Below, piece by piece: positions 2,488-63,813 of a stretch of 64,000 bases of DNA. The DNA is from Heterostelium album PN500 (lineage: Eukaryota; Evosea; Eumycetozoa; Acytosteliales; Acytosteliaceae), in the NCBI RefSeq assembly GCF_000004825.1, contig NW_008805072.1:1060435-1124434 (forward strand), read 5' to 3'. Made by a program: the position numbers and the translations under genes. The notes below the pieces were generated by a model that had not been told where the DNA came from, searched no databases, and worked only from the letters and a program-made list of their open reading frames with translations. The number at the start of each line of letters is the position of its first letter. Within the stretch, counting starts at the first letter, position 1.

Positions 2488-4077
2488 ATCATACTAATAA
2501 AATGAAAAAAAAACCAACACAAAAGACATATATAAAAAAAGAAAATTTTATATGATATAAATCTAGAATAACTTATTATTATTATTAAATTATTCCGTAG
2601 TAATAAATATTGAATGGTTTTTAAAATCAAGAGTACATCACAACAGCGTATTTGATCAATATCTATTAGTTTTATTTATTTTTCAATGTGGTGGGTATCC
2701 AAGAGCCAATTTCAATATGAACAATATTGTTTTTTTTTTTTTTTCGAAATATATATTTTAGTGATTCTATTAATGATTAATAGAACTAAAAAGGGTTTTA
2801 CCATATAAAGTAAAAAAAAATAAAAATCCCAAACAACCTGCCAAAAAAAAAATGAGGTTTATCCAAACCACACATCAAAAATGATGTTAGAGTCCATTTT
2901 TTTTACTTTTTTTGGTAAAAAAATGTTTTATAGTAAAATCTCTCTTGATCAGAATTAACAAACTTCTTTTTTGATCAAACTATTTGGTGTTCTATTTTAG
3001 AGACCTAATAAGACGAAAAATAAAAATAAAAAAGATTTTTAATTTTGATTTGCGTAATAATATAGAATAAAATTATTTGTTTGTTTTTGGTGAACTGTTT
3101 TTTATTACAATATTAATTGGTACCTCAAAATAGTTCTCCTTTATCGTTTTCTTTGTTTTGTTAGAGGAATGATAAAGATTTTTTTTTTCTATCATTTGGT
3201 ATATTAATTACTTTTTGAAAAACTATCAAAATTTTTTATTAAATGGTATTTTGTTAAAAATTTAATATAAATCAAATAAGATAAGTGATGTTAATTTTAG
3301 AGAATTGTTTCTCACCTAAAATTCTCACTTGTAAAACTGGAATTTCAATGCTGCTTGAATTGAACAACAAATGTTTCAACTGAATAGCGCTCAAATTGAA
3401 ACCATTTTCTAAATTGTATTTTTAAGGTTTGATCCGTTTAAAACATTAGAAATCCCGTTAAAAAAAATTATAAATGAATCAAATACATCCACAAGAAACA
3501 GTTAATACCGCCAAAAACATGGTTATAAATGTAATGTATGAATGAGATAGGAGCTGAAACTAGACCGTTAGTGGAATAATAGTATGGATTGAATAAAACT
3601 AAAATTAATTTGATACAAAATAACCAATTTACATAGATGAAAAATGTCTTTTCGTAAAGAGGTAAAAACAATGATGTTTATGGGCGTTTTATGGGTATTT
3701 GATTATGAGAATTAAATTGTTTGTAAGCAACAAACACAATGGATGTTTAGTGGTGTTTGTAAATGAATTGTTTTATTGAGTTTAGCCCAAACTTTGTATT
3801 TGTTTAAGACAATCAAAGCAAAAACAAGATATTGGTTCATTGCAGCAAAAAAGAGAAAAAACACTCCTAATGGTCAGTGTCACATCGATCTAAAGTTTAA
3901 GATTCATAGGCGGCTGTGGTTTATGAATTGTAGGTTGTTGGGAGGGCACCTGAGGTGCTTTTCGAGAGCGAATTTTAAGTAGAATGCAAAGATTGAGTGC
4001 TATAGGGGATGGTAATGATATTTAATAGAACACTGGAGTGTGGGGATGTCAATCAAAATAAAATTACATTAGAGAGA

Positions 4078-4777: not shown

Positions 4778-5389
4778 ATGAATAAATTAACCATTAGTTT
4801 TATGGTAAATGAAGATAACATATCACCCTCGCTTTCAAACTCAACATTTGTCTCCAAGAGCAAAAAGTCTGTTGATTCACATCAATCATCATATAAAAGA
4901 TCTCCCACTATGGTGAGTTCTTTATATACTGGTAATGCACCTCCACCAATCAAACTTACAACCAACGACAAACAAACAACTATACACTCCAACTCTTCTA
5001 CTTCTTCTTCCAGTGGAAGCAGTAGTTCATCAGCATCAGCATCATATAAAACAAACACCAACAAATATTATGAATACCAGAGATATAGCCAATACCAGAG
5101 AATGTACCAGCAACCTGCACAACAACAACAACCTTTATCACCTAAATCTCAATCACCACGTTCACCACGCTCACCACCATCACAAATTTCAACACAACAA
5201 CAACTTAATCATCACCCATCTTCCTATCATCCTTATTCCAAATTCAATAGTCAATACCCTGTATACAGTTCAATGGAACAACACTATCAACACCAACAAC
5301 AACTTTATAATCAATATTCTGGTATTGTGCCACCAACCTCACACCCATATCAACATCAATATGATAATTATTATGGTTACATTTATTAA
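4778..5389 (+). CDS. Ser/Gln/Pro/Tyr-rich protein of unknown function
   Basis: Single open frame of about 203 residues. I chose ATG 4778 (context TAAAGATG, A at -3) over the in-frame ATG 4760 (context TTTCATG), which lacks the A-rich leader typical of dictyostelid starts. The N-terminal third is Ser/Lys-rich with a poly-Ser stretch. The middle has SP repeats (LSPKSQSPRSPRSPP) that look like proline-directed phosphorylation sites. The last 60 residues alternate His, Gln and Tyr and end DNYYGYIY. No folded domain is visible and it looks wholly disordered. It may be a regulator or RNA-associated protein, but that is only a guess from composition. Confidence 0.55.
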   Translation: MNKLTISFMVNEDNISPSLSNSTFVSKSKKSVDSHQSSYKRSPTMVSSLYTGNAPPPIKLTTNDKQTTIHSNSSTSSSSGSSSSSASASYKTNTNKYYEYQRYSQYQRMYQQPAQQQQPLSPKSQSPRSPRSPPSQISTQQQLNHHPSSYHPYSKFNSQYPVYSSMEQHYQHQQQLYNQYSGIVPPTSHPYQHQYDNYYGYIY

Positions 5390-6613
5390 TTAAAAATCAA
5401 ATATTATAAAAAACTTTTAAACTTTGTTTAAAAGAATGTAAATAAAAAACCTTTATAAAATCAAATATAACAAAAAATAACTATTCTTTTTTTTTTTTAT
5501 TATTTACTTTTTTTTTTTTTATAAACTTTTCTTTTTTTTTTTTTTTTTTTTTGATCATTTTTTTTTCAATCCTGATTTGGTTTTTTTTTTTTTAATTTTG
5601 GTGAAGGTCACGACTTTTCATTCTTTGATCCACTGGTTTCACCAAATTTTGCAAACAACCCGATCAAAAAAAAAAATTACATTTTTGGAGGATGTTTTAT
5701 GGACAGTCCATCAAAATTTAGAATAAAAATAAACAAATAAATTAATTTTATATCAAATTAATGAATTGGAGCAAAATAAACCTCACCCACACACAAAAAA
5801 AAAAAAAACCACACAATCATTTTAAATCGTTGTTGAGCCACATTGGGTTTTTTTATGAAATGATATCATTGTGGTATTTTTTATCGGTAGAATGTGTGGG
5901 GTGGTGCCAAGGGGTGTGGGGTTAGAGTGTGATTGATCTATGAGTGGTGTGGTTGGTTTTTTGCTTTTTGTATATTATTGGTAATGTTTCAAATGCAGCT
6001 GTCTCTTAGCAACCCGTTAATTGTCTAGATTCTAAGTATGATTCAAAGAGTTATCGCACACCACACTCAAAAACCCAATCATTAGGTTGGTGTCAACCAA
6101 AAACCAAATAATCATTTTGAATTTACTTTCTGATCAAACAACAACAAAACAACAACACAACAAAGACAGATTTCACTCTCTCTAGCTATGTAGTAGATCT
6201 ATACAGCTACAGCTCCTCTCACTCACTACAATTTAACTATCTAGCCTCCACTATTCAACTTGAAAAGACTAAAACCTACACCACCAACCAAAACATCAAC
6301 AAAATAAATTCAGCCAAACAATATTCTCTATCTTTAATTGTTTTTCTTATATCATTTGTTAGCTAAAACACCTATTTAATTTAAATTCACTAAAATCAAT
6401 CAATCAATCAATAATCAAACTATCCACCAACCATTTTAAACCAAACTTTATAAAACTGTTTTAGATCAAAATATTCTAATCATAAATCAACTATCTATTA
6501 TTATATCTCTATTCCATTTATTTCTATCTTTTATTTATTTATTTATATACACTCTTGTTATAATCTTTAAATTTATTTTTTTAATTATATAATTAAAAAA
6601 ATAAAATGTTAAA
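5390..6613 (+). promoter_or_regulatory. Upstream region and leader of the Myb/SANT-like gene
   Basis: No coding exon is seen. It contains T-tracts (5480-5595) and a G/T-rich block at 5892-5958 (TGTGGGGTGG, GGGGTGTGGGGTTAG, GGTGTGGTTGG) that resembles developmental G-boxes. From about 6120 to 6600 follows a long C/A-rich then A/T-rich stretch that looks like an untranslated leader. The size and G/T block suggest a regulated, possibly developmental, promoter; this is inference. Confidence 0.4.
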
Positions 6614-8140
6614 ATGTTATCAATAGAATCTGACCGTATGAAGATTCGTGAATTGCTTTGCAGTCAAAGCAAAGATGATGATATAGAAGTTTCTAAATAT
6701 TCCAACAACAACAACAACAACAATGTTTCACATTTTAATACCATAAAAATACCACTTAACAAATCAACATCATCAATGAGTGATCTTATCGATGTATCTC
6801 TAAACCATTCCATTGCATATAAATCAAATTCTTCACCAATCCAACATACAAACTCTAGTTCACCACAACATTCACATCCAAATTCACCAACACAATCAAG
6901 AAAATTCTATCACCATGATGACTCTGATTTCACTATTTTGGCAAATAACTTTTTTAATAATCCAACATTAAATAAGAGTAGTAGCAGTCTGGAGCTATTA
7001 CCCATCCCGCCACCATCTTCAACAACATCTTCTTCTTTTTCTTCTTCTAACAATAAACCACATTCACCATTAATAGCTCAACAGCCAAACAACAATTCCA
7101 TATCTTTACCTTCTACTCCACTAAAACAACAACCAATATCCTTAACATCTTCTGGAAATAGTATCAATAACAATAACAACAACAACAACAATAATAATAA
7201 TAAATTAAATAAGCATCAAATGATAATGAGACTTACCTCTACATCATCTCCAATTGAAACCTTGGTACATAGCATCAGGGAATCCAGTTCCAGTGAATAC
7301 GATCAAGACTCTGATGACGAGCAAACCCTCCACTACAAATCCATTTCCAACCAAGCACTCTTGAAATACAATGAAATCCCAGTGACTTCTCGTAAGCTTT
7401 GGTCTCAGGAGGAATGTTGTCATCTTCTAGAGCTTGTACTTCAGCTGGATCCACAATCTTTTAAATCAAAAGAATCTGAAAATCGATGGCGAATCATTGC
7501 TAACGAGCTAGGACGTACTGTCACATCTACAAGAAAGAAATACATGAGACTCATGAATAAATGGACATCTAGTTCCTCCACTTCTTCTTCGTCTTCTTCG
7601 TCTTCGTCGTCCAGTTCCTCGTCAAACGCCAACGCCAACCATTCATCGCCAAACACTCACTCTATCAATCAGAGTCCAGAGAAAACAATTTTAACGTCTT
7701 CACCAACCATGGATGAAAAAAAAATGCGAAGAGACTACGATTCCTATTCTCATCAACTTCAACACCAACCATACCCATCTCATTCACCAATGAGGAGAGA
7801 ATCGAAAATCGAGATCATCAGAGGTAACCCATCGCCAGTTGTTTCGAACAACCAGTATGACCCTTCCTCGAGATCACCACTTGCAACATTTACTCCAATT
7901 TCACCTTCAACCACAGTAACATCACCTTCGTACCAATCATCCCTTTCCATGGTACCATCAACACCCATATCCAACAGAATTGATTCCACATTTTTAAACC
8001 ACTCATTTTCCAGACAACAACAAATACATTCACTAAATTCCAATGCTTACAATTTTGGATATAGATCTTCATCCAACGAAACAAACAATTCCGATGATTT
8101 CATATATAAACAACCAAAAAAAGAAATAATCCCTAGATAA
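6614..8140 (+). CDS. Myb/SANT-like DNA-binding regulator
   Basis: Single exon, 508 residues. Most of it is low complexity: Asn runs (residues 32-38 and 188-198), Ser-rich stretches and a 20-residue poly-Ser run right after the domain. The folded part is about residues 255-315. It has W (RKLWSQEECCHLLELV), W (NRWRIIANELGRT) and then TRKKYMRLMNKW, which is the spacing of a single Myb/SANT-like (trihelix-type) repeat with a third aromatic position. Such proteins bind DNA in the nucleus. The acidic patch before it (YDQDSDDEQ) and the Ser/Pro-rich tail could be activation or phosphorylation regions. One repeat only, so it is not a classical R2R3 Myb. Confidence 0.75.
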   Translation: MLSIESDRMKIRELLCSQSKDDDIEVSKYSNNNNNNNVSHFNTIKIPLNKSTSSMSDLIDVSLNHSIAYKSNSSPIQHTNSSSPQHSHPNSPTQSRKFYHHDDSDFTILANNFFNNPTLNKSSSSLELLPIPPPSSTTSSSFSSSNNKPHSPLIAQQPNNNSISLPSTPLKQQPISLTSSGNSINNNNNNNNNNNNKLNKHQMIMRLTSTSSPIETLVHSIRESSSSEYDQDSDDEQTLHYKSISNQALLKYNEIPVTSRKLWSQEECCHLLELVLQLDPQSFKSKESENRWRIIANELGRTVTSTRKKYMRLMNKWTSSSSTSSSSSSSSSSSSSSNANANHSSPNTHSINQSPEKTILTSSPTMDEKKMRRDYDSYSHQLQHQPYPSHSPMRRESKIEIIRGNPSPVVSNNQYDPSSRSPLATFTPISPSTTVTSPSYQSSLSMVPSTPISNRIDSTFLNHSFSRQQQIHSLNSNAYNFGYRSSSNETNNSDDFIYKQPKKEIIPR

Positions 8141-54707: not shown

Positions 54708-56321
54708 TTAATCTGAAATCATGGTAGGAACATAACTTCTGCGTCGTAAGTTTGTTTCTTGATCAGAGTCGTTGAGTGATGATGGACTTGATTGATCAGC
54801 TTCACTCAATAGATGTACCTCATCTGGACTACCATGAAGTGCGATAGACTTTAGCGCAGCTATACCATTGCCCATCGTACGAGGACTTAACACTTCAACG
54901 GTGTTTTCTGATTTCGCTGATGACGAAGAGCTATTGGTCTCTCGCTCGCATTGAACCAAGAAGTCGTCGATGGTCAAGAGAAGCTGTGATGGATCGTCAC
55001 GGTGAATGATGAACCATCCTTGGAGCTGTGCAGTCGATACTCTATGATTTCTCAGTCTCTCCAGTAGTTTCTCTACGACCGGCTTGGTCAGTGAGTTGTC
55101 TTTGGTAAAGAATCGCTTGAGCATCTGAGTGATCTGATACTCTGAGGCGTAGTCGAATTTCACTTTGATATCGATTCTACCCGGACGAATCAGAGATGGC
55201 GACAATCGCTCGATGTGATTAGTTGTCATGATGAGAATACGTCCGTCGGAGCTGGCCAGTCCATCGAGTGCATTGAGCAAGCCCGAGAACGTGAGAACGT
55301 CATTTTTGCCCTTTCGCTCGATAAACGCAGCATCGATATCCTCGAGCACCAAAATCGTTTCTTTCGGTGTTTTCTGAATGATCGAATGAATGTTTCCATC
55401 GTGGATGCCCTTGCTCATATTCATGATGCTAATGGACATACCGAATTTGCCTGCCACCGAGAGAATGTACGATGTCTTACCGGTACCCGGTGGACCAAAC
55501 AACAAATAACCACGTCTATAAGGTACACCAGTATTGATATACCATTGTTTTCCATTAATAAAGTTATCGACGTCTTCGATCACCTTTTGTCCGATGTTGG
55601 AATCCAAAATAACAGATTCTATTGATCTCTTTGGTTGAATAGAAATACATTCCCAGAATTGCGAATGAGGTTCCAATGAATATATTTTAGTCTAAAATTA
55701 TTAAAAAAAAAAGAAAAGGTTAGTGTTATTACAATACTATTCATTATTATTATTATTATTATTTTTACTTACTTTATCTTTATTTAAATTAATGGAATAT
55801 TCCATTGCTGTGTTTATAAGATCTTTGACGATTTCTAGATCACCACGTAAGATTGTTACATCAATGAAATCCTCTCGCATTCCATCGATGCTTCGCTTCT
55901 CGGATGACTCTCTAACGATGTATACTAGATAGCCTTTGTAACGAATCCAGACAGTGCCTGTTGGCAACAGTTTGAACTCTGGCTTACCACTCTTTACTTC
56001 GGCCTGCTCGTGATAACGCGTATACACAGTGACTGCTCTCGTTCCGAATATCTCCTGTACGGAGAGCCATTCCAACATCCAGATGAACGCTTGATCCGGA
56101 TATGATATACGAGCGGTATAGTAGAACCGACTCTTTATCCACTCGCCCGATGACATCAACATTCCACGCAAACTATTCAGTATCCATGTTATCACCAGCA
56201 GTGCTATACCTGCACCTACCATTGATCCACTTTGTGTCATACCAGCCATTCCCAACATACCACCCAACATACCAATGCCAGCAGTACCAGGATCACCTGT
56301 AGGATTTAATACATTATCCAT
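54708..56321 (-). CDS. BCS1-type AAA ATPase
   Basis: Exons 56321-55773 and 55691-54708, 510 residues. The N-terminus is Gly/Met-rich (GMLGGMLGMAGM), followed by one membrane helix (GAGIALLVITWILNSL). Next is the BCS1-specific region with LLPTGTVWIRYKGYLVYI. The AAA module has GYLLFGPPGTGKTSYIL (Walker A), ETILVLEDIDAAF (Walker B), ILIMTTNHIERLSPSLIRPGRID (sensor and arginine finger region), and WYINTGVPYRRG just before it. BCS1 in the mitochondrial inner membrane folds the Rieske protein into complex III. The family is clear; whether this is the true BCS1 orthologue or a paralogue is not, since the N-terminus lacks an obvious cleavable targeting signal, as in known BCS1. The C-terminal 70 residues are Ser-rich. 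Confidence 0.9.
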
Positions 56322-57160: not shown

Positions 57161-57316
57161 TTAAAATGTGGAGTTCCTTTTATCGAAAAATGGCAAAGGT
57201 TTCGAGAATGATTCCCGAATCATCATTTTCTTCAATAATTCTTCTGATATTTCCTGAAACTTCATTTTCTCCAATAATTCCTCTGCTGAATCTCTAAACT
57301 CGGAGGGATCAATCAT
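57161..57316 (-). CDS. Possible 51-residue protein or gene fragment
   Basis: An ATG-started frame of 51 residues reads MIDPSEFRDSAEELLEKM, then FQEISEELLKKMM, then ends with RESFSKPLPFFDKRN. Its composition is much less A/T-driven than its surroundings and codon use looks normal. It contains a duplicated helix unit (EELLEKM / EELLKKM) of about 15 residues. It lies just downstream of the 57421-59268 gene on the same strand. It could be a short gene, a terminal exon or a leftover. No family is recognised. Confidence 0.35.
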   Translation of the reverse strand: MIDPSEFRDSAEELLEKMKFQEISEELLKKMMIRESFSKPLPFFDKRNSTF

Positions 57317-57420
57317 GGACTCTATTATCTATTCATTAGATACTATTAAAAAAGTTTATTATATAAGGTGATAGTTTATATTATAATGTAAATGTTTATA
57401 AAACCAATTTTTATTTCTGA

Positions 57421-59268
57421 TTATTCAGGAAGCATACTAATAGCATTACCCTTATCTAGAGTTAGTCTGAGATTTCTTGTTACAATGGCATTTTCTGGAT
57501 GCTTTACATTATAAGCATCAAGTGCAGCATACATGTAATCTAGATATTCTCTGGATGTCATTATATATGTAGGATTATCTTTATAGTAGTTCTCTACTGG
57601 ATCTCCAGTAAAAAAATGTGTGATTGTGTCCCAGAAAATCTTGGCTACTGCAATTACGATGAGAACAAAAGTCAAGACCAAACATGCTGGACCAGACCAG
57701 GAAGTGCTGACAAAGAATGTTAAAACAAAAAGGGCAAACGTCAGAGAAAGCTCGGTTAGGGAAAGGGCAGCCTCTCCCCACTGTTTGTTTGCAATTGCTG
57801 TCACCAACTCGTATCCTGAGACCAACATACTAGCTACAAGTAATACACCAGTGACGATCTTCAAGTACTTGGTCATTTTAATAAGAGTAGCAAACTTGGC
57901 GACATTTTTAGTTGCTACGGCCTGCGCTATTGGTGAAACTACATTCGGCTTAATTAGGTCTGCAATTTTCGCGCCAATCCATTTGTATGCTTTATAACCA
58001 AATTGAATTGCATCCACAATCGAAGTAATGCCATCGACACCAGTTTGTGCAGAGGTTATCCAGAGTGAGACCTTTTCTGGATCGGTAAGCTTGTCATAGC
58101 TATAGAGTCCTTTATAGATGACACCAGCATTAACCAAAACAAACAATCCAGATACTAATTTAAACGTTGTCGATTCCTCCCATTTAGCCACAAGTTCAGG
58201 TTTTCCAACTGGGATTGCACCTTTAATCTTCTTGAGTTTCTCAATGAACTTATCCTTGTTGATAACATAAGCATCACTAGCACTTACTGCCTTTGTCTTT
58301 GCAGCGTTGACCATTAACTTGCTCATGTGGAAAAGAGCATCTCCTAAAATTTTACCAAATGTTCCTTTACTTGTGTAAATAGCCTCCCAATCGGTAACTA
58401 GATTTGTCCATGGATGACTTGTTGATTTAGCAATCGCCACAAGGACATCGGTTGTTATCTTTCTAAACATTCTTTTGATTTTTGGAGTGTTTTTCAAACT
58501 GAATGGTGCTGCTATCGCATAGAGGTGAGAGTAGTATTCACTGAGCACGGTACTTGAGAGTCCAAATGAAGGGTCCAAAATATCCAACTTTGCCTTGAGC
58601 TCTGAGAATGCATAAGAATGATCGGCGACATCGGCTTCATTTAGAAGCACCTTGTTGGAATTAAAAGCCTTTTCCACCCATGTTTCTTTGTAGACATCTT
58701 CCAAAAGGTACGACTTGACTTTATCCTTCAGAGTGTCTGCATTGTACATGTAAGGAATGAACGCAGGAACTTTCTTTACTGTGGCGAGATAGGAAAATTT
58801 CATGTTGACGTCGGTCATAATTTTACTACCTTGAGAAGCCTGGAAATCAGTGGTAGCCTTAGACTTGACTCTGGAATAGGATTTGGAATTTTCAGTACGC
58901 TCCTTCAAAAACTGGAGCAACCAGAGGTTAGAGTATTTGGTGATCTCCGCTGCATATCCCTCACCGACGATGGCACCGGTAATCTCGGTAGAGAGAGTTG
59001 GCTTGGAAACATTGAGTACTGATCTACCATTGTCAGTAAGATTAGCCTTAATAAGGTCGTACATATAGGAGTCTGCTTCTGTTTTTACAAAATCTGTTTC
59101 GGGCAATGTAGTGTCCGTTCCTTTTTGATAGGTTGTGAGTGCCATGAACTTTTCGGGGGTCAAAGTGGAGACATCCACAGTTGATTCGGTCTTATAGTTG
59201 GTTGTGAGATGATTTTTTCTCCATGTTAGAAAAGTCTCAATGAAAGTTTTTGTTTCAACTGTTGTCAT
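57421..59268 (-). CDS. Cluster protein A: helical module plus membrane segments
   Basis: Single exon, 615 residues, no signal peptide. Residues 1 to about 270 are homologous to the divergently transcribed neighbour: FIETFLTWR, VSTLTPEKFMALTTY, LNVSKPTLSTEI, YSNLWLLQFLKER, VPAFIPYMYNADTLKDKV, AFSELKAKLDILDPSFGLSS. The C-terminal half differs. It has a hydrophobic segment near 375 (FKLVSGLFVLVNAGVIYKG) and three strong ones between about 460 and 560 (IVTGVLLVASMLVSGYELV, LTELSLTFALFVLTFFV, CLVLTFVLIVIAVAKIF). It ends with a polar tail. This suggests a soluble helical head and a membrane-inserting region. I know no family for it. A pore- or membrane-active role is speculation from layout only. 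Confidence 0.75.
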   Translation of the reverse strand: MTTVETKTFIETFLTWRKNHLTTNYKTESTVDVSTLTPEKFMALTTYQKGTDTTLPETDFVKTEADSYMYDLIKANLTDNGRSVLNVSKPTLSTEITGAIVGEGYAAEITKYSNLWLLQFLKERTENSKSYSRVKSKATTDFQASQGSKIMTDVNMKFSYLATVKKVPAFIPYMYNADTLKDKVKSYLLEDVYKETWVEKAFNSNKVLLNEADVADHSYAFSELKAKLDILDPSFGLSSTVLSEYYSHLYAIAAPFSLKNTPKIKRMFRKITTDVLVAIAKSTSHPWTNLVTDWEAIYTSKGTFGKILGDALFHMSKLMVNAAKTKAVSASDAYVINKDKFIEKLKKIKGAIPVGKPELVAKWEESTTFKLVSGLFVLVNAGVIYKGLYSYDKLTDPEKVSLWITSAQTGVDGITSIVDAIQFGYKAYKWIGAKIADLIKPNVVSPIAQAVATKNVAKFATLIKMTKYLKIVTGVLLVASMLVSGYELVTAIANKQWGEAALSLTELSLTFALFVLTFFVSTSWSGPACLVLTFVLIVIAVAKIFWDTITHFFTGDPVENYYKDNPTYIMTSREYLDYMYAALDAYNVKHPENAIVTRNLRLTLDKGNAISMLPE

Positions 59269-59928
59269 GATAAATATTTAAATTTAATAAATAAAATAAA
59301 AATAAAATAGATAAACAATAATTAATATAGAAACTTAAAAACTAATATAAAAAAATAATAAAAAACTTTAGATTAAACTTTATAATAATCAATCGAAAGT
59401 TTTAAAACTAATTATTAATTTAAATAAATTTTGTTAGTAAATATTTTAAAAGAAAGAAGCCACATTTTGGGTTACCTTTTCCCACCAGAACGAATAAATA
59501 AACTGTTTCTTTTTAGCATCTCTGTTCTGGAGATATCGATATTTAGGTGATCACAAAATCTCATGTATCAAAATATCTGAACTGATGGTTAATAAACAAA
59601 TTTAAATATCGATATCTCCAGAACAGAGATGCTAAAATGGGATCTTTGGTTAGAGACTTTATGTTATAATCGAAAAATGAAACCCCAATTTGTTTGGGAG
59701 ATTTTTTTGTGATAAAAGTGTTTGTGATTTCAATGCAAAGATCACAAAAAAATTAAAGTGTTTTGGTCTACCAAAAAACTTTCAACGAAAAAATCTTTTT
59801 TGCACAAAAAATACAGAACTTTTTTTTTTTATTTTTTTTATTCAATAAACAAATTGGAACTTTAATAAATTAATAATAAGACGAGATTATATATTATATT
59901 TATTTATTTCATTTGAATATAAAAAAAA
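59269..59928. promoter_or_regulatory. Divergent promoter of cluster genes A and B
   Basis: 660 bp between starts of opposite direction. It contains a 35-bp perfect inverted repeat (59511-59545 and 59603-59637, separate entry) placed about 240 bp upstream of gene A and 290 bp upstream of gene B, so nearly central. The rest is A/T-rich. Confidence 0.5.
59511..59637. repeat. 35-bp perfect inverted repeat with 57-bp spacer
   Basis: Left arm 59511-59545 begins TTTTAGCATCTCTG and ends ATATCGATATTTA. The right arm 59603-59637 is its exact reverse complement, and identity stops abruptly at both ends. The arms include CTCTGTTCTGGAGATATC and a short internal palindrome (ATATCGATAT). No open frame is inside and no target-site duplication is obvious next to the arms. 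It could form a strong hairpin in RNA, be a palindromic regulatory site for two genes, or be a small non-autonomous element. Confidence 0.9.
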
Positions 59929-62313
59929 ATGACAGAATCATATTCAATTATATCTACTTTTCAAAGTTGGAGACTTGCAAAAACAAAACAAGAACACCCA
60001 GAGTTTGATAGTATTGATATCAATACTTTGACCGCTGAAAATTTTTTGGCATTGTCAACATTCGATCGAGATACACAAGTCGATATCGTTCAAGACAAAG
60101 CCGAGCAGTTCTTTATAGATCTTGTTCTTTACCATCTTTCCAGTGAAGGATTGAATGCCCTCGGATCAAGCAAACCTTCTCTTAATGCCGATCTATTAGA
60201 GTTGGTTCAAGACCCTGCAGTCGTCACTTATTTTCAAAACTATGCTCCACTCTGGCTTCTCCAAACGATCTATCATCACGACCAAGCTTCATACCAATCC
60301 GATATTAAAGGTGGAGTAGTCGAGAATAGCATGTTTAGTCTCAATAAAAGCAATATTTTCATTCTTATCACCATGAAGTTGTATTACTTTGCACTCAAGC
60401 AATTGGTTCCAGCATTCCTACCATTTATTTATTGGAGCGATTTGAATCAATTCCAAATCAAAGTTAGAGTATACTTTAAAGACACCAATGTTATCAAAAA
60501 CTGGATGACCACTGCCATTCAATGCCAGAATGCGGATATTGGTAACCGACTATCATTCGATGCCGTTCGTTTCAATGAATTAAAGACCAAACTAGATCTC
60601 CTTCAACCGAACAACAGACTTTCAAATGACATTGTTGGTTCTCTCTGGTATTCACTGCTTTCCTACTACTCCACCAAGAATCTCATCAACAATCCAGTTA
60701 ACAGAAATATAGTTATCGCAACCAACCAAAGTATTCTCAACAGAATCATTGCCAATCCAGATAACCAGTTCAATACCCAAATCAATGATGCAACCACTGC
60801 TCTTGCTTGTGATAAGCCAACTTTGATCAATCTACTATCAGATTTGATGATCAAAGCAGCTTTAGAGACTCCATTCGATAACGTTGTTCCAGGAGCTGAT
60901 TTCCAATCTACGGCCAAACCATATACCAAAGAATTCATTGCCAAAACCCCGTTTACACCGCTCCAGGATAATTCAGATTTTCTCAGATTCGCCAATGCTA
61001 TATACTGTGCTTGTCATGTCGGAGTTTTAGCCTATGGAATCCTCAATGGTCATGATTACACTCTATTGGTTTTCTTTAACCCAGGTCTAATGTATATTGG
61101 AGAAGGACTCTTTATTTATAAATATGCTGATGGTATTGATCAAGGAAATATCTTTAGTGTGATGGGTGATTTCCTCAGATCTCTCACAAACGATATGGCA
61201 AAGGATGCAACAAATATTTTCACGGCTTTCCAAACATTGGTTCCAAGACTAATTCATCCAAACACTAGTGAGCATATAACTCGGTTAATTCCATCATTTT
61301 ACATTCTCACGAAAGATCAACAAGCATTCCAACTGTTCAAGTCCCAGAGCTCAATGATATTGGACTGGGGAAAACTAGCGGTCAACTTGCACAAGATGGA
61401 TGAAAATGAAGTAGATAACTGCATTCCTGGTCTTTTCACTGTTTTTAAAAAGGCTGGATGTGCTGCAACCTCCACTGCTCTCTTGCTTGGAAACAACCTC
61501 TATGGTCTATCATTGTGTGCAAGAGTTTACCCACAACTCGAAATGACCTTGAAACGATATGAACTGACCATTAAAGGTCAGTTTGATATTTCAAACATTC
61601 CAGACCCCATAGAAGTCTTTATCAACTCTGTTGAAGAGAAGTTTCGAATTGACTATGATGGTGCACAGTTTGATGACGATGGATGGGAGAGCTATTACGA
61701 ATCATTGGATCCAAGAATCCAACGTGGTATTGACATTTTGAAGGAAGTTCATAAAGATAATCTCAATGATATGTTTGTACTTCTCGCCGAAATGGAACAA
61801 AGAGTCAGAGAGCAAGAGTATAATAGATTTACCACTCAAATTGTTAAACTTGAAAACAATATCAATACAGTGCAAGGAGGAGATTGGAAAGCCATTCCCG
61901 GATCCCAAGCAACAGTAACCATTACCCGTCCAAGTCGATTAATTGCCACTCTTCAATTCTATTCCAATGTTTTAAATAATGGATATGGTTCAGATTCAAT
62001 TGATGTGACCTCTGCAATCAATAACCAACTTATGACTTTAGGAGGATGTATGTATTAAACATTAAATAATCAGATAAAAATCGAGAATAAAATACTAATA
62101 TGAATCAACACAACAATTTTAGATAACCAATACCCCTGGCCTGTAGGTACATCAATCAGTCATAGTAGAGATTGGTCAACTGGTTTTTCAATCACAGAGC
62201 AAATTCTTCAAGTAGGTGTCTATCAATATGATATTAGAGCCAGAATTAGAGGTTCTCTTCCAAGTGCTCAAGTGGATGCTCCTGCTGCTGTCCTTTTCAT
62301 TGCTCCATTGTAA
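59929..62313 (+). CDS. Cluster protein B: helical module, coiled coil and beta-rich C-terminal module
   Basis: Exons 59929-62047 and 62123-62313 (GTATGT...TTTTAG), 769 residues, no signal peptide. Residues 1 to about 270 match cluster protein A: IISTFQSWR, INTLTAENFLALSTF, GSSKPSLNADL, YAPLWLLQTIY, VPAFLPFIYWSDLNQFQIKV, RFNELKTKLDLLQPNNRLS. The middle is mostly helical and soluble. Near 610-650 is a heptad-like stretch (LLAEMEQRVREQEYNRF). The C-terminal 120 residues match cluster protein C: TTQIVK, GSQATVTI, SIDVTSAINNQLMT, YPWPVGTSIS and AAVLFIAPL. The intron falls inside this module. It therefore bridges the two module families of the cluster. Function unknown. Confidence 0.8.
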
Positions 62314-62861
62314 AAATGAATTCAAACGACTATTTAAATAAAAAAAATCAAGTTATAAATTTATCAATTTCATTTATTTTATTTTGTTGGTTATTTACAA
62401 TGAAAAAGTTAAAAAGAATTAAAACTCCTTCATGAAATGTAACCCCTCAAGATATTAATTAATTTAGTCAAAATCAATATCCCAATTTTTTTCACAAACA
62501 CAAAACTGTGATTAAACTCGTGATTGAGGATGTAAATGCGAGCGTTCGAGGATTGTTTTTTTCATTTTTTTCACAACTCGTTTTTTGTGATCAAAACCAA
62601 GTTCGAAAGAGGTTTGAACTTTTGGACCAACACACGTTTGCAAAATACAAATTTTGCAAAGATAATCTATTAAAGGATCATGATCTCTGAAGTGTTGCAA
62701 CCCATTTTTTGGATATCTTTTCTTTTAATTTGGAATATGGTGACAACAAAATACAAACTATATTTTTTTCAAAATAAAATGTATATATTTATTAAAACAG
62801 ATCAATCTTTTTAAAAGTTAATATATTTCTAAAATAATAATAAATAAAATTGAATAAAATA
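62314..62861 (+). promoter_or_regulatory. Spacer between cluster genes B and C
   Basis: 548 bp, mostly A/T-rich. It contains a perfect 10-bp hairpin at 62637-62660 (TTTGCAAAAT-ACAA-ATTTTGCAAA) and a slightly less A/T-rich patch at 62520-62640. The plus frame 62508-62690 overlaps this hairpin and lacks supporting features; I do not call it. Confidence 0.4.
62637..62660. repeat. Perfect 10-bp inverted repeat
   Basis: TTTGCAAAAT, a 4-base loop ACAA, then ATTTTGCAAA. It lies about 200 bp upstream of the gene C start and could be a hairpin or a dimeric protein-binding site. Confidence 0.7.
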
Positions 62862-63813
62862 ATGGCTTCAACATTAATCTTTAATGGTAGAGTTGATGGA
62901 TATGAATTAAATTATAAAAGTGATGGTTCCGCCACTTATACTTTAAATGGTGCTCTATTATGGAAGGTAAATTTTTATTTATTAGTTAAAAAACCAAACT
63001 AATGAGTGACTAATGTGTACTATTTAAATCTACTAGCAACAATGGATGACAGCTTGGTCAGATTATATTATGTTTAAAACAAGTGATAATAGAATTTGTT
63101 TATTATCATATATGGATATAAATGGTTTTTTATCGGGCGATATCTTGACAAACACAGGCTTCACACCATTACTCCGAACAAGCATGGATCAAAATTTGGA
63201 TTTCAAATATTTATCAGAGTTTTCAGATAAAAAAGATGTTGTTATTGCTTTGAATAAAACTGGAGGTCGTAAATTCTATACTATCAATCTCACAGGCTCC
63301 ACAATCACCGAATTCACACCAAGTTTCAGTGTAACATCAGAACTTTTCAAGAAATCCATGGACCTAGAAAAAAGATTGTCCAGACTAGAGAATTCCAGGG
63401 TCACTACTCAAATTGTCAAAGTTGCTACTCATGGAAATGTGGTAAACTCTACGGATTGGGTAACAATCGCAGGTTCACAAGCTTCAGTTGTCATTAACGT
63501 ACCAAGTAAAGTTGTTGCCATTGTCCAATACCACTCATTGGTTACGGGTAATCTGAGTGGTACCTATAGTATTGATGTTACATCTGCTCTTAACGGTAAT
63601 CTAATGACTAATGGAGGTATGAACAATGCATGGCCTGTTGGTTCTTCAATAAGTCAATGTAGCGCCTGGAACAATGGAGTTTCAGTGACTTCAGATATTC
63701 TTCAACCAGGAATTTACAATTATGAGATGAAAGCAAAATTAAGATTCACTCCTCCCGGTGGAGTAGGATCAGTAAATGGACCAGGTGCTGTTATCTTTAT
63801 CATGCCTCTGTAA
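62862..63813 (+). CDS. Cluster protein C: beta-rich N-terminus, coiled coil, shared C-terminal module
   Basis: Exons 62862-62966 and 63037-63813 (GTAAAT...TACTAG), 293 residues, no signal peptide. The first 130 residues are beta-strand-like with repeated aromatic/Gly turns (GRVDGYELNYKSDGSATYTL, then YIMFKTSDNRICLLSYMDI and KTGGRKFYTINLTGS). A short heptad region (LEKRLSRLENSRV) leads into TTQIVKV. The last 130 residues are the module shared with protein B: GSQASVVINVPSKVVAIVQY, YSIDVTSALNGNLMTNGG, WPVGSSISQCSAW, GAVIFIMPL. A coil followed by a beta sandwich is the layout of trimeric C1q/TNF-like or fibre-tip proteins, so a trimer is plausible. That is inference from layout, not from identified homologues. 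Confidence 0.75.

What the first reader, a model, noticed from the sequence alone, without database searches (positions are those of the whole stretch)
57161..63813. Three-gene cluster built from two shared, unfamiliar modules
Protein A (minus) and protein B (plus) share a helical N-terminal module of about 270 residues with clear motif-by-motif agreement (TWR/SWR, TLTPEKFMALTTY/TLTAENFLALSTF, VPAFIPYMY/VPAFLPFIY, FSELKAKLDILDP/FNELKTKLDLLQP). Protein B and the adjacent protein C share a different C-terminal module of about 120 residues, each behind a heptad-like coil. Protein A instead ends in several membrane segments. None has a signal peptide, and I recognise no family. A plausible inference is a set of partner proteins that assemble by the shared modules, one membrane-inserting and the others displaying a beta-rich tip. 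A lectin, defence or allorecognition role would fit, but there is no direct evidence.
Basis: partly seen in the sequence, partly recalled or inferred. Interest (0 to 1): 0.78.

Follow-up and report, generated by a model that had tools for sequence, protein, structure and literature searches.

The report
Amoeba paired pore-like protein family
In what looks like a social amoeba genome, an uncharacterised gene family often comes in pairs - one partner able to enter membranes, the other a related but water-soluble form, sometimes carrying a sugar-binding-like tip - which looks like a home-grown two-part membrane-puncturing system, though nothing has been tested in the laboratory.

Summary
A (57421-59268, minus) and B (59929-62313, plus, one intron) are paralogs over their whole length, not only over 270 residues; B keeps the region that forms A's membrane segments, but without the hydrophobicity. 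The genome holds at least 12 A-type and 6 B-type genes; 5 of 6 B genes lie beside an A gene, 4 of 6 head-to-head with a 575-663 bp spacer; 6 of 12 A genes have no B nearby. One pair appears to have been duplicated together (dS 0.61 for A, 0.57 for B). A-types share a hydrophobic helical hairpin with a W-x-G-P tip and a symmetric Glu/Lys pair; B-types lack it. B and C here, and in one sister cluster, end in a coil plus a beta module whose low-confidence model is closest, by TM-score, to TNF-like lectins. C had a missed first exon. No relative was found in Pfam, NCBIfam, PHROGs, PDB sequences or phage, plasmid, viral and prokaryote collections; no other eukaryote genome could be searched. Best reading: a two-component, partly lectin-tipped helical membrane-permeabilising system that works like, but is not shown to belong to, the ClyA/XaxAB toxins. 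Pore, target and localisation are inference.

The parts
57421..59268 (-). Gene A, 615 aa, single exon, 68.7 kDa, pI 8.9: predicted helical body plus C-terminal hydrophobic hairpin; no signal peptide seen
57625..57867 (-). A residues about 468-548: hydrophobic helix 468-486, helix 502-520, W524-S-G526-P527 tip, helix 528-546; E506 and K543 placed symmetrically about the tip
   Evidence: window coordinates converted from residue numbers by hand
58309..59268 (-). A residues 1-320: module shared with B (WR, LTxxxFxAL, VPAF-PYMY, F-ELK-KLD-LDP-LS motifs)
59269..59928 (.). 660-bp divergent A-B spacer, GC 0.21, presumed shared promoter
59511..59637 (.). Perfect 35-nt inverted repeat (59511-59545 / 59603-59637) in the A-B spacer; no second locus found in the genome
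59929..62047 (+). Gene B exon 1: full-length A paralog without the hydrophobic hairpin, then a heptad-like coil and the first part of the beta module
62048..62122 (+). Gene B intron (GT...AG), inferred from homology to C and to the intronless sister B30
62123..62313 (+). Gene B exon 2: rest of the beta module; B = 769 aa, 87.1 kDa, pI 5.0
62862..62966 (+).
62967..63036 (+). Gene C intron (inferred)
63037..63813 (+). Gene C exon 2: rest of the N-terminal domain, heptad-like coil, possibly TNF-like beta module; C = 293 aa, 32.0 kDa

Best explanation
A and B are the two subunits of an alpha-helical, two-component membrane-permeabilising (pore-forming) system native to the amoeba. Shown by sequence: A and B are full-length paralogs, often kept as neighbours; A-types carry a hydrophobic helical hairpin that B-types lack; two clusters add a coil plus beta module to B and carry a third gene, C, with the same module. 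Inferred: both subunits fold as soluble helical bundles; A's hairpin (E506 - helix - WxGP tip - helix - K543) is buried in the soluble form and inserts on contact with a membrane; B, which cannot insert, co-assembles with A through the common body (net charges opposite in 4 of 5 pairs) and, in this cluster, brings the assembly to target glycans with a trimeric TNF-like tip; C is an accessory that co-trimerises with or multiplies that tip. Targets could be prey or pathogen bacteria in phagosomes, or non-kin amoebae.
For: Homology of A and B across the hairpin region, E=4e-14, with 8 negative controls at 0.037 to 0.6: a hydrophilic paralog suggests that this region can fold without a membrane. 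Hairpin helices: mean hydropathy 1.34 to 2.72 in 11 A rows (one truncated row 1.54), -0.37 to 0.94 in 6 of 6 B rows. G526, P527 and K543 in 11 of 11 rows of alignment A2, E506 and W524 in 10 of 11; A7, not in A2, has WTGP and the Lys in its second exon. A-types and B-types fall on two sides of one branch, 100/100, among 18 proteins. 5 of 6 B genes have an A gene within 6 kb, midpoint to midpoint; 4 are divergent with spacers of 575-663 bp. A24a/A24b dS 0.61, B24a/B24b dS 0.57. dN/dS 0.11-0.38 in 11 of 12 pairs, the twelfth not computable. C's N-terminal domain only in the two clusters with a tipped B. Among the 50 rows shown, the C model's highest target TM-scores are to TNF-like lectins.
Against: No pore activity, localisation or expression datum. 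The AF2 model of A failed (mean pLDDT 33.5), so the fold is not known. No A or B locus matched the alpha-xenorhabdolysin A or HBL models and no PDB sequence matched credibly. 6 of 12 A-types have no B within 6 kb and B10 has no A (coordinates), so pairing is not obligatory; the C24a pair is tail-to-tail, 3 kb apart. Absence of a signal peptide needs unconventional release or a cytosolic role. An ordinary membrane protein with a derived soluble paralog is not excluded. Charges are not opposite in pair C24b (A +5, B +3). The tip model is weak (pLDDT 43-68 in the module) and none of its 8 Foldseek matches at E<=0.001 is a TNF-like lectin.
Confidence: 0.42

Rival explanations
1. A is a constitutive membrane protein (channel-like or membrane-shaping) of an internal compartment, and B is a soluble peripheral regulator that arose by losing the membrane segments; no killing or permeabilising function.
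For: No signal peptide seen; strongly hydrophobic helices; family under purifying selection.
Against: Retention of the hairpin region in hydrophilic form in B fits a soluble bundle better; duplicated and partly decayed copies (C11 at 818 kb and C3 at 1760 kb) and a possible lectin tip on B seem unusual for such proteins (judgement).
Confidence: 0.28
2. Poison-antidote pair: A is a membrane toxin and B its non-inserting paralog that caps it in producer cells, giving kin recognition or protection.
For: Divergent spacer keeps both genes together at 4 of 6 B loci; B is a paralog lacking the hairpin; one pair seems duplicated together; window A has a longer end branch than its sister (1.0 against 0.29) while B does not (0.25 against 0.28).
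Against: 6 of 12 A-types have no B within 6 kb (coordinates); B's fused beta tip suggests targeting rather than capping.
Confidence: 0.14
3. The TNF-like module is the functional core: an adhesion or lectin complex in which the helical bodies are only scaffolds.
For: 10 complete copies of the module plus a fragment in the genome, 2 of them behind signal-peptide-like N-termini, others behind Cys-rich N-termini.
Against: 4 of 6 B genes and all 12 A genes lack the module, so the helical pair is the commoner unit.
Confidence: 0.1

Closest known systems
Two-component ClyA-like alpha pore-forming toxins (XaxAB / YaxAB; HBL/Nhe three-component)
   Same: Two large helical subunits of which one engages the membrane first and recruits the other (YaxAB; PMC6162564, passages seen).
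   Different: No A or B locus matches NF033928 or PF05791, nor do 17 members in library scans; here the subunits are full-length paralogs with a hydrophobic hairpin near the C-terminus; native to a eukaryote.
T6SS pore-forming effectors of the BTH_I2691 family (Tke5)
   Same: Large helical region with several hydrophobic segments late in the protein, in Tke5 followed by a beta-rich membrane-binding domain (PMC12909789, passages seen); L017 residues 308-530 align to model positions 591-813 at E=0.007.
   Different: 14.9 bits against a cut-off of 150; 3 of 17 members at E<=1; nothing at E<=1 in the genome-wide search, which scored 2 candidates; no PDB profile match. Probably shared composition.
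TNF-like lectins BC2L-C N-domain and PLTL
   Same: Highest target TM-scores among the 50 rows shown for the C model: 0.54 (2wq4_A) and 0.53 (9ib9_B), rmsd 4.8 A, about 140 columns; BC2L-C N-domain is trimeric, PLTL a hexamer of TNF-like trimers (PMC12914763, passages seen).
   Different: They rank 29th, 30th and 40th by E-value (0.0025-0.0042), query TM-score 0.32-0.33; no sequence match; module pLDDT 43-68; sugar site not tested; the module sits behind a coil on otherwise unrelated proteins.
Dictyostelid discoidins and the P. pallidum lectin pallidin
   Same: Lectins of social amoebae; discoidin I also lacks a signal peptide (recalled).
   Different: No Pfam match of C or of 5 module proteins to a lectin family; identity with pallidin could not be tested (no sequence seen).

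Membership tests
ClyA-like / alpha-xenorhabdolysin toxins | Sequence model match (NF033928 alph_xenorhab_A; PF05791 Bacillus_HBL) | tested here: not met
   Genome-wide searches hit no A or B locus and no place over the cut-off; hmmscan of 17 members listed none
ClyA-like / alpha-xenorhabdolysin toxins | Elongated helical-bundle fold of the family | tested here: inconclusive
   AF2 model mean pLDDT 33.5, mostly helix but not interpretable
ClyA-like / alpha-xenorhabdolysin toxins | Pore formation by the A-B complex | not testable with these tools
   needs protein work
BTH_I2691 / Tke5 pore-forming effectors | Model score above cut-off (150 bits) | tested here: not met
   best 14.9 bits; genome-wide none at E<=1
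BTH_I2691 / Tke5 pore-forming effectors | N-terminal MIX domain | tested here: inconclusive
   no MIX-named model among the families listed for 17 members, but whether the libraries hold one was not checked
TNF-like lectins | TNF-type jelly-roll fold | tested here: inconclusive
   low-confidence model; the only 3 of 50 rows shown with target TM-score above 0.5 are TNF-like lectins, but 4 of the 8 matches at E<=0.001 are a birnavirus capsid protein and none is a TNF-like lectin
TNF-like lectins | Trimeric assembly and glycan binding | not testable with these tools
   a heptad-like stretch precedes the module in 4 proteins scored (5 of 6 a/d positions in two, 4 of 6 in two; no control run); binding needs an assay

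The most novel reading that the evidence does not exclude
[quoted passage not shown] it may be the molecular basis of killing of foreign cells, for example of the 'killer factor' reported for Polysphondylium pallidum.
Probability: 0.2. Interest if true: 0.85.

Novelty: new variant of a known kind. Interest (0 to 1): 0.58.

Why it matters
If the pair permeabilises membranes, a social amoeba carries a two-subunit helical pore system with its own paralogous non-inserting partner and a lectin-like aiming domain - an architecture whose nearest described kin are bacterial - and the killer factor reported for Polysphondylium pallidum, as well as amoebal killing of bacteria, would gain a concrete candidate gene set. 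Even without that, it is a family of at least 18 genes without a name in the libraries searched here.

Tried and rejected
Tmpp129, NUDE_C, EPS_sugtrans, STAT1, PSMbeta, DUF3965 and similar hits: under the curated cut-offs or weak, none shared by more than 3 of 17 members; set aside as composition. PDB hit of C exon 2 to a 3-dehydroquinate synthase, E=0.00044 over residues 33-158: not listed with profiles A4 and A7, but A7 holds only the module and A4 is thin over this part, so it is set aside, not disproved.

BTH_I2691/Tke5 homology: followed because L017 and L014 aligned to the membrane region; dropped.

Relatives outside this genome: 2 scans of prokaryote contigs, 4 scans of viral contigs, tblastn of A in plasmids and phages and of C in phages: none. 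B was not searched in plasmids or phages, nor C in plasmids. The scans use one or two short conserved peptides as seeds, so distant relatives could be missed. No collection of eukaryote genomes other than the window's own could be searched. PADLOC was not scanned.

No fold search was run on that model.

Shared promoter motif: no 8- to 12-mer with at least four G/C is shared by 3 of the 4 divergent spacers.

Literature: searches; no listing named this family, but a text search cannot find an unnamed sequence. Killer factor: the only print trace seen is one sentence in PMC3559258 (passage). Pallidin: listing 87 and a passage of PMC11900508, no sequence.
Full report
Setting. The window lies in a 32.9 Mb genome of 39 contigs. 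No tool named the organism, and Rfam found only a tRNA in the window.

Gene models. A is a single-exon minus-strand gene, 57421-59268, 615 aa. B runs 59929-62313 with one intron at 62048-62122 and makes 769 aa; the intron was placed by homology to C and to the intronless sister B30. That exon is conserved in the sister C gene on contig C30. The N-terminal domain of C was found only in these two genes (4 matches at E<=0.1, all at these two loci).

A and B are one family. BLASTP of A against B gives E=2e-28 over 327 columns. Profile-profile comparison of alignment A2 (11 A-types) with A3 (6 B-types) aligns 579 columns, E=4.1e-81. Cut into parts, the N-terminal parts give E=2.7e-70, the C-terminal halves 1.4e-22, and the hairpin plus tail alone 4e-14; two mismatched-domain controls gave 0.037 and 0.5 and six column-shuffled controls 0.19-0.6. 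So A's membrane region is not an extra ending: B has the same region in hydrophilic form.

Census. Searches of the genome with A, B, A30x and A3 (lower bounds by the tool's own statement) give 12 A-type genes (A7 in at least two exons; A30x on C30 at 483 kb very divergent) and 6 B-type genes, plus decayed A-like stretches with stops on C11 at 818 kb (90% identical to window A over one stretch) and on C3 at 1760 kb. On the tree of 18 proteins A and B fall on two sides of one branch, support 100/100. The tree was rooted on A30x, whose long branch makes its place unsure, so which form came first is open.

Pairing. 5 of 6 B genes have an A gene within 6 kb, midpoint to midpoint. Four are divergent, with spacers of 660, 663, 648 and 575 bp (C11, C30, C7, C24b). 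The fifth (C24a) is tail-to-tail, about 3 kb apart with an unrelated open frame between. B10 stands alone, and 6 of 12 A genes (A3, A9, A24c, A25a, A25b, A30x) have no B within 6 kb (coordinates). Independent placement would give 5 of 6 with a probability near 1e-11, but that is not a fair null, since members of one family spread by local and whole-pair duplication: A24a/A24b and B24a/B24b have dS 0.61 and 0.57, and the two pairs differ in orientation, so a rearrangement must have followed. What counts is that adjacency was kept in the C11, C30, C7 and C24 lineages. Of 12 gene pairs tried, 11 gave dN/dS between 0.11 and 0.38 and one could not be computed; several dS values are saturated.

The hairpin. 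A-types show hydrophobic segments near residues 468-486, 502-520 and 528-546 of A. At the threshold used, the script lists all three in 9 of 12 rows; A7 lacks the third because its second exon was not included, A9 misses the middle one, and A30x gives one segment that spans the tip. None of 6 B rows has a segment at these places; 3 of 6 have one elsewhere. In A2 (11 rows, A7 left out) G526, P527 and K543 are in 11 of 11, E506 in 10 of 11 (Gln in A30x) and W524 in 10 of 11 (Cys in A3). A7's second exon supplies WTGP and the Lys. E506 lies 18 residues before W524 and K543 lies 17 residues after G526, so in an antiparallel hairpin they would face one another at the base; this is inference. In the 6 B-types these columns are mixed: Glu at 506 in 1, Gly at 526 in 1, Pro at 527 in 1, Lys at 543 in 3; mean hydropathy of the two hairpin helices is -0.37 to 0.94, against 1.34 to 2.72 in the 11 A rows of A1 (1.54 for the truncated A7 helix).

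The tip. The B/C beta module occurs in 10 complete copies and a fragment: B and C of this cluster and of C30, and single proteins on C2 (three), C16, C25 and C33, with a fragment on C5. Two of them (C25, and C2 at 424 kb) have signal-peptide-like N-termini by hydropathy. A heptad-like stretch precedes it in the four examples scored, 5 of 6 a/d positions in two and 4 of 6 in two, without a control. AlphaFold2 with two rows gave pLDDT 43-68 along the module. Foldseek against the PDB gave 8 matches at E<=0.001: four chains of the infectious bursal disease virus capsid protein, a chlamydial secreted protein, a Bdellovibrio protein, a cyanophage tail fibre and a phage spike. Of the 50 rows shown (of 1273 matches at E<=10), the only ones with target TM-score above 0.5 are the TNF-like lectins PLTL (two rows) and BC2L-C (one), at ranks 29, 30 and 40. 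I read this as a probable jelly roll, perhaps TNF-like, not as proof. Sequence profiles found no credible match.

Linkage of C and tipped B. Module matches at B genes were found only at C11 and C30, and only these two clusters have a C gene. In C30 the C gene is inverted. This suggests that B and C meet through the module.

Charge. In the pairs, A net charge is +9 (C11), +8 and +10 (C30), +18 (C7, first exon only), +3 (C24a), +5 (C24b); B is -21 (exon 1), -24, -19, -4, +3. Opposite in 4 of 5 pairs; the pairs are not independent and no control was run.

What it is not, as far as tested. Pfam, NCBIfam and PHROGs scans give no accepted match for A, B or C; relatives were scanned in Pfam and NCBIfam (17 A/B members) and module proteins in Pfam and PHROGs. 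PDB sequences, phages, plasmids, GTDB and IMG/VR contigs give no credible relative (gaps named in Tried and rejected). NF033928 and PF05791 hit elsewhere in the genome below cut-off and at no A or B locus. The Tke5-like signal did not stand up.

Mechanism. Since B keeps the region without hydrophobicity, it can presumably fold in water; the simplest reading is that A's hairpin is packed inside a soluble helical bundle and comes out at a membrane, as in colicins, Bcl-2 proteins and ClyA-like toxins (established knowledge; for two-component toxins, PMC6162564 passages). B then acts as assembly partner or as cap. The lectin-like tip and C would aim it. Shown: paralogy, frequent pairing, hairpin conservation, module sharing. 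Inferred: soluble-to-membrane switch, A-B binding, pore, target.

Link to biology. A killer factor of P. pallidum is mentioned in PMC3559258 (one passage). If the species is right, A/B/C are testable candidates; nothing here shows that they are that factor.

Verdict. A real, uncharacterised family with a recurring paired architecture; mechanism plausible but unproven; interest 0.58.

Noticed in passing
window 59511-59545 / 59603-59637; L011 3459-3478 / 3534-3553: Inverted repeats sit in the middle of two of the four divergent A-B spacers (35 nt perfect in C11; at least 20 nt exact in C7, different sequence). In about 190 kb scanned (some overlap), the only other hits of this kind were two at one place in L023.
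   Followed up: partly
window 57161-57316, minus strand: A 51-codon frame resembling the C-terminus of the protein kinase gene that lies beyond C (L027 2872-4656): a possible duplicated kinase remnant downstream of A, inside the finder's coordinates but not part of A (compared by eye).
   Followed up: partly
window A gene 57421-59268: Window A has an end branch of 1.0 against 0.29 for its sister A30a (sister support 82/76), while the neighbouring B genes evolve evenly (0.25 and 0.28).
   Followed up: no
L023 (C2 about 1017-1019 kb), L021 (C16), L022 (C33): Small proteins with a Cys-rich N-terminus, a heptad-like stretch and the same beta module, two of them in tandem on C2, each apparently with an intron within the module.
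   Followed up: partly
L019 2011-2756; L017 about 4981-6708: Decayed A-like copies with stops inside, on C11 at 818 kb (90% identical to window A over one stretch) and on C3 at 1760 kb.
   Followed up: no
window 54708-56321, minus strand: Two frames that look like a BCS1-type AAA ATPase (resemblance recalled, frames), probably one gene with an intron.
   Followed up: no
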